Shown here piece by piece: positions 56,990 through 57,664 of a stretch of DNA of 64,000 bases (positions are counted from its first letter, which is position 1; each line of letters starts with the position of its first letter). This DNA is from Paramesorhizobium endophyticum. GTDB lineage: Bacteria; Pseudomonadota; Alphaproteobacteria; Rhizobiales; Rhizobiaceae. Location: assembly GCF_014640615.1 (NCBI RefSeq), contig NZ_BMHH01000001.1:1-64000 (forward strand), in the 5' to 3' direction. The notes beneath the pieces are model-generated. The model was not told the DNA's origin. It did no database searches and saw only the letters and a list, made by a program, of their open reading frames with translations. The translations under genes were made by a program, and so were the position numbers.

Positions 56990-57018
56990 CTTGAAGATGA
57001 CAAAACCCTTCTCCATAT
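56990..57018 (+). promoter_or_regulatory. Rhizobial-type promoter of a small RNA
   Basis: CTTGAA (56990-56995) and CCATAT (57013-57018) with a 17-base spacer match the alphaproteobacterial sRNA promoter consensus CTTGAC-n17-CTATAT at ten of twelve positions. It faces the sRNA candidate at 57023. Confidence 0.65.
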
Positions 57019-57022
57019 CAGC

Positions 57023-57141
57023 GTGGCTTGCAGGCGCGTCTCCTCCCATTGCGCGCGGCAAGTGTTCCCCTCTGGAGGTTTTGCCCGTATGGGCACCTTC
57101 AAAACTTGAAGCCGGGCTTTCGCAAGTCCGGCTCTTTTTTT
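57023..57141 (+). ncRNA. Putative trans-acting sRNA with anti-Shine-Dalgarno loop
   Basis: This is a predicted transcript of about 119 bases. Its first hairpin (57027-57062) is closed by CTTGC/GCAAG and GCGCG/CGCGC and exposes TCTCCTCCCATTG, which can pair with ribosome binding sites. A central region has TCTGGAGG and GCCC-gtat-GGGC. It ends in a terminator (AGCCGGGCTT-tcgc-AAGTCCGGCT then seven T, 57110-57141). The layout resembles rhizobial sRNAs with conserved CUCCUCCC loops (alpha-r8/MmgR/suhB or alpha-r14). The exact family needs a covariance search. Confidence 0.65.
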
Positions 57142-57352
57142 GGCTAAATTTTCCGGGAGATGGCGGGGCGTGCCCATATTGCGCCGCAATATGCGATGCG
57201 AGGGGATGATGATGACGAAAAAATGTCAGAAATCAAAGGCCTCAGAGCATTTCTTGCAAGGCAGCCATGCAAAATCGCCTCTGCACATTTTTGCGATGCG
57301 AGGGTATATCTAGCTCACACAAAAAAGAACAAACGAAGTCTAGGTGAGAAAA

Positions 57353-57499
57353 ATGAACCTGATCCGCTCCTACAACAACTGGCGCCGTTACCGCGCTACC
57401 GTAAACGAACTGAGCCGCCTGTCGACCCGCGAACTGAACGATCTCGGCATCCTTCCCGCCGAAATCCCCTACGTCGCCCGCAAGGCCGTCGCTCGCTAA
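57353..57499 (+). CDS. DUF1127 small Arg-rich protein
   Basis: This 48-residue protein starts MNLIRSYNNWRRYRATVNEL and continues with L-S-T-R-E-L-N-D-L-G-I, the DUF1127 signature. It is basic overall. The best studied relatives are small RNA-binding proteins (CcaF1 of Rhodobacter) and phosphate/carbon metabolism effectors in Agrobacterium. The ribosome site is AGGTGAGAA. The gene is followed directly by three hairpins with CCUCCUCC loops, as in the ccaF1-ccsR locus, so mRNA and RNAs are probably co-transcribed under stress. Confidence 0.9.
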   Translation: MNLIRSYNNWRRYRATVNELSRLSTRELNDLGILPAEIPYVARKAVAR

Positions 57500-57664
57500 G
57501 TTTGGACGCATGGCTCGTCCCATGCGCAAAGAATCATAGAGATATCGCCGGGGTCACCTCCTCCTCCCAGACCCCCGCGATAAAAGGCCGGCACCTCCTC
57601 CTCCCAAGCCGGCCTTTACAAATAGCACCCGCCGCACCTCCTCCCGCGGCGGGTGTTGTTTTTT
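57500..57664 (+). ncRNA. Three CcsR/cuckoo-type RNAs with CCUCCUCC loops
   Basis: After a small hairpin (CGCATGG-ctcgtc-CCATGCG, 57507-57526) come three stem-loops. Their stems are GGGGTC/GACCCC (57546-57579), AAAGGCCGGC/GCCGGCCTTT (57583-57617) and CACCCGCCGC/GCGGCGGGTG (57626-57655). The loops read ACCTCCTCCTCCCA, ACCTCCTCCTCCCAA and ACCTCCTCCC. Stem sequences differ while the loop is kept, so selection is on the anti-Shine-Dalgarno loop. This matches the CcsR / cuckoo / alpha-r14 group downstream of DUF1127 genes. Confidence 0.85.
57626..57664 (+). terminator. Terminator formed by the third CcsR-like hairpin
   Basis: A 10-bp GC-rich stem is followed by TTGTTTTTT. The third anti-Shine-Dalgarno hairpin thus doubles as the transcription terminator of the DUF1127-RNA unit. 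Confidence 0.9.

What the first reader, a model, noticed from the sequence alone, without database searches (positions are those of the whole stretch)
57353..57664. DUF1127 gene followed by three anti-Shine-Dalgarno hairpin RNAs
Three adjacent stem-loops have different stem sequences but nearly identical loops (ACCTCCTCCTCCCA), and the last doubles as the terminator. Unrelated stems with a constant loop indicate selection on the loop. The loop complements ribosome binding sites. The arrangement matches the ccaF1-ccsR locus of Rhodobacter and the cuckoo/alpha-r14 RNAs of rhizobia, where the RNAs are processed from the DUF1127 mRNA under stress. The copy number and coupling here are specific to this locus.
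Basis: partly seen in the sequence, partly recalled or inferred. Interest (0 to 1): 0.75.

Follow-up and report, generated by a model that had tools for sequence, protein, structure and literature searches.

The report
DUF1127 gene with three-hairpin αr14 RNA
A small-protein gene runs straight into a small RNA of a known family, whose three hairpins each hold up nearly the same ribosome-site-blocking loop; it is a good new example of a documented arrangement, not a new kind of thing.

Summary
DUF1127 (57353-57499) is followed by three stem-loops with a near-constant CCTCCTCCC loop (57543-57582, 57583-57617, 57620-57661); the last looks like the terminator. The RNA is Rfam ar14/RF02344, full length, 109.5 bits against a cut-off of 58.8. 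Three hairpins, variable stems and the same anti-Shine-Dalgarno (aSD) loop are that family's published description. The claim that copy number and coupling are specific to this locus is wrong: ar14 is over cut-off behind DUF1127 in 76 of 80 named relatives. CcsR1 does not match (24.2 bits against 65.3). In 96 copies loops stay alike (0.90-0.94) while the first two stems are near shuffled level. Most likely a VtlR/LsrB-activated mRNA makes a conserved small protein and an aSD small RNA that represses mRNAs. Transcription, processing and targets were not shown. An AbcR (ar15) gene 214 nt upstream of DUF1127 is found in 5 of the 80 relatives, the closest five.

The parts
57257..57271 (.). VtlR/LsrB-type box CAAGGCAGCCATGCA, presumed activator site
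   Evidence: 1 mismatch to the Brucella VtlR motif CAATGCAGCCATGCA (motif from PMC12595884); exact minus-strand match to GCAT-N3-TG-N3-T (from PMC7486931; checked); degenerate form with <=3 mismatches in 80 of 80 relatives, 10 of 400 shuffles
57305..57309 (+). putative -10 core TATAT of the DUF1127-ar14 promoter
   Evidence: TATAT present at this place in the window and all five aligned relatives; promoter itself inferred
57340..57348 (+). Shine-Dalgarno region CTAGGTGAG of DUF1127
   Evidence: identical in the window and five aligned relatives
57353..57499 (+). DUF1127 small protein, 48 aa
   Evidence: PF06568 55.4 bits; mean pS 0.46 against pN 0.09, window against 80 relatives, first 41 codons, uncorrected
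57540..57661 (+). αr14 small RNA, whole
   Evidence: RF02344 positions 1-123, 109.5 bits, gathering 58.8
57543..57582 (+). hairpin 1, 14-nt loop ACCTCCTCCTCCCA
   Evidence: MFE fold
57583..57617 (+). hairpin 2, 15-nt loop ACCTCCTCCTCCCAA
   Evidence: MFE fold
57620..57661 (+). hairpin 3, 10-nt loop ACCTCCTCCC, followed by a T run: probable intrinsic terminator
   Evidence: MFE fold and sequence

Best explanation
One transcription unit, probably switched on by a VtlR/LsrB-type LysR activator bound at 57257-57271, is read from a promoter near 57305 through DUF1127 to the terminator in hairpin 3. It is a two-product transcript. The mRNA part makes a 48-aa arginine-rich DUF1127 protein. The 3' part is, or is cut into, an αr14 small RNA. 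Each of its three hairpins presents a CCUCCUCCC-containing loop that pairs with purine-rich Shine-Dalgarno sites and blocks translation of target mRNAs; the three loops are probably redundant, as shown for NfeR1. Shown here: the sequence, the fold, family membership, loop conservation with stem turnover, selection on the protein, linkage across genera, and the conserved box. Inferred: transcription, activation by VtlR/LsrB, 3'-end processing, pairing with targets.
For: ar14 full length at 109.5 bits. ar14 over cut-off directly behind DUF1127, same strand, in 76 of 80 named loci (20/20, 20/20, 18/20, 18/20). All 96 ar14 copies examined fold into three CTCC-loop hairpins. With one rule for both parts, loops are 0.90/0.92/0.94 alike between genomes (0.69/0.68/0.74 with letters shuffled) and 5' stems 0.53/0.57/0.65 (0.48/0.49/0.50 shuffled). 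VtlR/LsrB-type box before DUF1127 in 80 of 80 named loci; with the undegenerate motif in 24 of the 35 ar14 copies that have DUF1127 within 100 nt. The published box pattern occurs 7 times in the 64 kb window, only once at this locus, at 57258. The gap from DUF1127 stop to ar14 is 40 nt here and 11-12 nt in six of eight relatives measured (52 and 67 nt in the other two), leaving little room for a separate box and promoter. A DUF1127-free ar14 copy in the same genome has a box of its own 51 nt before the RNA. The genome has trxB, a LysR gene and an AbcR gene in that order, the arrangement described around vtlR (PMC7486931 passages). Literature: NfeR1 silences mRNAs through three redundant aSD loops and needs LsrB (PMC10746234 passages); VtlR activates DUF1127 genes (PMC12595884 passages).
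Against: No RNA data. A promoter inside the DUF1127 frame cannot be excluded by sequence. 42 of 96 ar14 copies have no DUF1127 within 700 nt upstream, so the RNA does not need the protein gene, and only 7 of those 42 have the undegenerate box with at most 3 mismatches, so the box goes with DUF1127 more than with the RNA. The degenerate motif was written, and the 80 loci are related to each other. Of ten DUF1127 loci read on named plasmids (of 290 records with a match) only the Pseudochrobactrum one has the box within 3 mismatches; the nine from Rhizobium, Agrobacterium, Sinorhizobium, Shinella and Pararhizobium do not. In those ten ar14 lies downstream in seven (six of them 217-235 nt after the stop), upstream in two, and is absent in one. 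VtlR/LsrB targets differ between species: LsrB is reported not to control AbcR in S. meliloti (PMC7486931 passage). The LysR gene was identified by position only; no NCBIfam cut-off was reached for it or for the cut-off trxB frame.
Confidence: 0.72

Rival explanations
1. ar14 is an independent trans-acting RNA with its own promoter inside or just after DUF1127; adjacency is historical and the protein is unrelated to its maturation.
For: NfeR1 has its own sigma70 promoter; 42 of 96 ar14 copies lack DUF1127 within 700 nt; on six of ten plasmid loci ar14 starts 217-235 nt after the DUF1127 stop.
Against: Only 40 nt (window) or 11-12 nt (six of eight relatives measured) separate stop codon and RNA; the published box pattern is found upstream of DUF1127 and nowhere else at the locus.
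Confidence: 0.18
2. The hairpins are mainly a 3'-UTR stabiliser and terminator for DUF1127 mRNA; the loops matter little.
For: Hairpin 3 is terminator-like and its stem is the best conserved of the three (0.65 against 0.50 shuffled).
Against: Loops are far better conserved than stems of hairpins 1 and 2, across genomes and within one molecule, where stems are at or near shuffled level; 42 of 96 copies of the same RNA have no DUF1127 within 700 nt.
Confidence: 0.04
3. The RNA is a CcsR-type RNA matured with the help of its DUF1127 partner (CcaF1-like), under heat and oxidative stress through an RpoH promoter.
For: Same gene order and loop type as ccaF1-CcsR1-4 (PMC10253847 passages).
Against: CcsR1 model 24.2 bits against a cut-off of 65.3; the conserved upstream element is a VtlR/LsrB-type box. 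Whether this DUF1127 protein binds RNA is untested; for the Agrobacterium and Salmonella proteins protein partners are reported, though CcaF1 can stand in for the Agrobacterium ones (PMC12501420 passages).
Confidence: 0.06

Closest known systems
αr14 / NfeR1 / SmelA075 RNAs of rhizobia (Rfam RF02344)
   Same: Three hairpins, variable stems, CCUCCUCCC in every loop, terminator-like hairpin 3, several copies per genome; LsrB acts on NfeR1 in S. meliloti
   Different: NfeR1 has its own promoter; here the box lies before DUF1127 and the RNA follows the gene
ccaF1-CcsR1-4 locus of Rhodobacter sphaeroides (RF02791)
   Same: DUF1127 gene followed by several aSD hairpins in one unit
   Different: Four RNAs, RpoHI/RpoHII promoter and a 71-aa protein there; CcsR1 model not met here (24.2 against 65.3 bits)
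'Cuckoo' RNAs and the CIN1 locus (Reinkensmeier and Giegerich 2015; paper not held, seen only as cited in PMC10253847 and PMC7143759)
   Same: Association of short DUF1127 genes with CcsR-like RNAs is described as frequent in alphaproteobacteria
   Different: No difference tested; this locus is an instance
VtlR-activated DUF1127 genes (BAB1_0914, BAB2_0512, BAB2_0574; atu1667)
   Same: Small DUF1127-type protein, VtlR box in the promoter
   Different: In the passages read these are treated as protein genes or as a possible small RNA; the words r14, cuckoo, NfeR1 and hairpin do not occur in PMC7486931 or PMC12595884. Their own DNA was not examined here

Membership tests
Rfam ar14 (RF02344) | Score over the curated gathering threshold, full length | tested here: met
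   109.5 bits, cut-off 58.8, positions 1-123
Rfam ar14 (RF02344) | Three hairpins with aSD motif unpaired in each loop | tested here: met
   Folding
Rfam ar14 (RF02344) | Stems vary, loops constant between copies | tested here: met
   96 copies, (also: loop columns 1.60 bits, stem columns 0.98 bits on an alignment that recovered hairpins 2 and 3 only)
Rfam ar14 (RF02344) | Expressed trans-acting RNA that represses mRNAs at the ribosome binding site | not testable with these tools
   Needs RNA and reporter experiments; known for NfeR1 (PMC10746234 passages)
CcsR1 (RF02791) | Score over gathering threshold | tested here: not met
   24.2 bits against 65.3
CIN1/cuckoo locus | Short DUF1127 gene followed by 2-4 adjacent CCUCCUCCC-loop hairpins (2-4 recalled and in part from PMC3927594; association from PMC10253847) | tested here: met
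CIN1/cuckoo locus | Co-transcription and cleavage into small RNAs | not testable with these tools
   No RNA data
VtlR/LsrB regulon | Box GCAT-N3-TG-N3-T upstream | tested here: met
   Minus-strand match at 57258; either strand within 250 nt in 73 of 80 relatives
VtlR/LsrB regulon | Loss of expression without the regulator | not testable with these tools
   Experiment needed

The most novel reading that the evidence does not exclude
In the Phyllobacterium-Brucellaceae group the VtlR/LsrB-activated DUF1127 genes are two-product transcripts: each makes a small protein and, from its own 3' end, an αr14 aSD RNA with no promoter of its own. Effects so far credited to these small proteins could then come partly from the RNA. 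This would bear on the question left open for atu1667 (protein or regulatory RNA, PMC7486931): both. In the window's clade an AbcR RNA sits immediately upstream, giving two aSD RNAs and a DUF1127 protein side by side.
Probability: 0.5. Interest if true: 0.5.

Novelty: new member of a known kind. Interest (0 to 1): 0.27.

Why it matters
The locus itself is one more member of a curated family. The useful part is the linkage: a VtlR/LsrB-type box, DUF1127 and an αr14 RNA are held together across the nearest genera, while the stems of the RNA turn over. Studies that remove or overexpress such DUF1127 genes may have changed the RNA too, and could separate the two with a stop codon in the protein or changes in the loops.

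Tried and rejected
CcsR and 6C RNA as the family: below their cut-offs. A MAFFT/RNAalifold consensus of 96 copies recovered only hairpins 2 and 3, probably because the stems of hairpin 1 do not align; replaced by folding each copy alone. The first loop-stem comparison (loops 0.85/0.86/0.90, stems 0.34/0.34/0.62) anchored loops on the CTCC letters by which they had been chosen and gave stems no freedom, so it overstated the contrast: without the anchor letters loops are 0.71/0.75/0.79, and with free offset stems are 0.53/0.57/0.65. applies one rule to both, with shuffled letters as control, and is the one I rely on. The idea that one box-promoter module serves ar14 with and without DUF1127 is not well borne out: 7 of 42 copies without DUF1127 have the undegenerate box, four of them 40-52 nt before ar14 and the others at 121, 131 and 550 nt. 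16S rRNA 3'-end patterns GGATCACCTCCTTTCT and GGATCACCTCCTTT had no match in the draft genome, so identity of the loop with this genome's own anti-SD was not verified. Candidate targets: GGAGGAGG-N3-10-ATG occurs 47 times, 6 times in the reversed control; 30 of the 47 sites were examined, 10 frames sent to Pfam, and the upstream frame of 15 checked. Among starts that look real there are a TRAP and an ABC solute-binding protein, two ABC ATPases and a TauE exporter, but also a sugar kinase, a CoA-transferase and others; too few and too loosely chosen to claim enrichment. No covariance model of my own was built; Rfam's served.

Full report
WHAT IS THERE. The window carries a 48-aa DUF1127 frame at 57353-57499. 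The ar14 match begins 40 nt after its stop, and its three stem-loops lie at 57543-57582, 57583-57617 and 57620-57661. Their loops are ACCTCCTCCTCCCA, ACCTCCTCCTCCCAA and ACCTCCTCCC. The fold is far more stable than shuffles (-65.5 kcal/mol, z = -9.8, 0 of 200). The last hairpin is followed by a T run.

WHAT IT IS. cmscan gives Rfam ar14 (RF02344), full length, 109.5 bits against a curated 58.8; CcsR1 scores 24.2 against 65.3 and 6C 32.5 against 47. The family was described years ago: SmelA075 with three and SmelA099 with four CCUCCUCCC hairpins and more variable stems (PMC3927594, passages); αr14 with three hairpins, hypervariable stems and aSD loops (PMC7143759, passages; PMC10746234, passages). 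The association of DUF1127 with such RNAs is also in print as the CIN1 locus (PMC10253847, passages; the 2015 cuckoo paper and the 2021 CcaF1 paper are not held).

HOW COMMON. The genome holds four ar14 copies and four DUF1127 matches; two are paired. In a sample of the GTDB family 60 of 61 genomes have ar14 at E <= 0.001 and 56 of 61 over the cut-off; in the order sample 32 of 101 and 11 of 101. Of 96 copies read (45 genomes, all at least 64.1 bits, taken mainly from the top of the capped list; many lower-scoring copies were left out), 54 have DUF1127 within 700 nt upstream and 44 within 200 nt; tandem copies share upstream regions, so these are not independent. A scan of named genomes with a DUF1127 alignment kept the best 80 of 352 relatives; the closest are Phyllobacterium leguminum (98%), Paramesorhizobium deserti and Mesorhizobium sp. 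RMAD-H1 (96% each). ar14 is over cut-off directly downstream in 76 of 80. The four misses were folded: L145 and L161 show three hairpins in the right place with shortened motifs, L161 with only TCCC in the third loop; L147 shows four, three with the motif; L146 keeps one clear motif loop and a terminator without it. Ten of the 290 plasmid records with a DUF1127 match were read: ar14 lies downstream in seven, upstream in two and is absent in one.

LOOPS AGAINST STEMS. All 96 copies fold into three hairpins with a CTCC loop and stems of at least 6 bp, bulges allowed. By a stricter rule 70 of 96 show all three, 24 show two and 2 show one, against 0, 3 and 62 of 480 shuffles. Comparing copies of different genomes (4479 pairs per hairpin), with one alignment rule for both parts, loops are 0.90, 0.92 and 0.94 alike (letters shuffled 0.69, 0.68, 0.74) and 5' stems 0.53, 0.57 and 0.65 (shuffled 0.48, 0.49, 0.50). 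Within a copy loops are 0.90-0.94 alike, and stems 0.46-0.51, at or near their shuffled 0.46-0.50. An earlier, less fair comparison is told under what was tried. Selection is thus on loop letters and on pairing as such; the stem of hairpin 3 is also conserved to some degree.

CONTROL REGION. Position 57257-57271 reads CAAGGCAGCCATGCA, one mismatch from the Brucella VtlR motif quoted in PMC12595884, and its other strand fits GCAT-N3-TG-N3-T from PMC7486931. A degenerate form is found with at most 3 mismatches in 80 of 80 named loci (41 with at most 1), at 78-102 nt before the DUF1127 start in at least 71, against 10 of 400 shuffles. The degenerate form was written, and the loci are related. With the undegenerate motif 44 of 96 upstream regions match with at most 3 mismatches against 24 of 960 shuffles: 24 of the 35 copies with DUF1127 within 100 nt (19 of these with the box 233-300 nt before ar14), 13 of the 19 with DUF1127 further off, and 7 of the 42 without DUF1127. 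So the box goes mainly with DUF1127. The regulator is probably present: trxB, a LysR gene and AbcR stand in that order on contig 10, as around vtlR, and a box pattern precedes that AbcR. No curated cut-off was reached for that LysR gene or for the cut trxB frame. Counter-evidence: nine of the ten plasmid DUF1127 loci lack the box, and VtlR/LsrB targets differ between species.

THE PROTEIN. Synonymous change far exceeds non-synonymous (mean pS 0.46, pN 0.09, window against 80 relatives, first 41 codons), so the frame is a real gene under selection. Whether DUF1127 binds RNA or proteins is unsettled in print (PMC12501420, passages).

MECHANISM. See best explanation. Shown: sequence, fold, membership, linkage, selection, box. 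Inferred: transcription, regulator, processing, targets.

NOVELTY. New member of a known kind. The two-product reading for VtlR/LsrB-activated DUF1127 genes was not met in the passages read of PMC7486931, PMC12595884, PMC12501420 or PMC9751625 nor in the titles and abstract openings listed by searches; most subscription papers are not held, so this is weak evidence of absence. DUF1127 with RNA in one unit is itself in print for Rhodobacter.

Noticed in passing
window 57026-57138 (+): An AbcR small RNA (Rfam ar15, 54.5 bits, cut-off 40) ending 214 nt before the DUF1127 start, with CTCCTCCCA of its own. At the gathering threshold only L087-L091 of 80 named relatives (Phyllobacterium leguminum, Paramesorhizobium deserti, Mesorhizobium sp. 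RMAD-H1, P. phragmitis, P. salinisoli) have one there.
   Followed up: partly
window 56990-57018: CTTGAAGATG...CTCCATAT before AbcR, largely conserved in five relatives (one has GTTGAAG), resembles a heat-shock (RpoH) promoter; that consensus is recalled, not tested.
   Followed up: no
window 57177-57191: Palindrome TATTGCGCCGCAATA between AbcR and DUF1127; its core TTGC[AG]C[CT]GCA (+ strand) sits at -173/-174 in L087-L091 and within 500 nt upstream of DUF1127 in no other of the 80 named loci.
   Followed up: partly
L011 1322-1438 (+) and 1494-1613 (-): Two ar14 RNAs facing each other 55 nt apart, no DUF1127 match within 700 nt upstream of either; a similar convergent pair, 58 nt apart, is in a genome of the same genus (G050, L053).
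   Followed up: partly
L083, L076, L035, L016: Tandem arrays of four (L083) or three ar14 copies in other genomes of the family.
   Followed up: no
L093, L138: Records titled Bacillus subtilis SK6B4 and Xylophilus sp. carry DUF1127-ar14 loci like those of Pseudochrobactrum and Brucella; probably mislabelled or contaminated assemblies.
   Followed up: no
L169, L170, L176, L177: Four Rhizobiaceae plasmids typed as conjugative carry the same order: a 3'-5' exonuclease gene, DUF1127, then ar14 217-219 nt after the DUF1127 stop.
   Followed up: no
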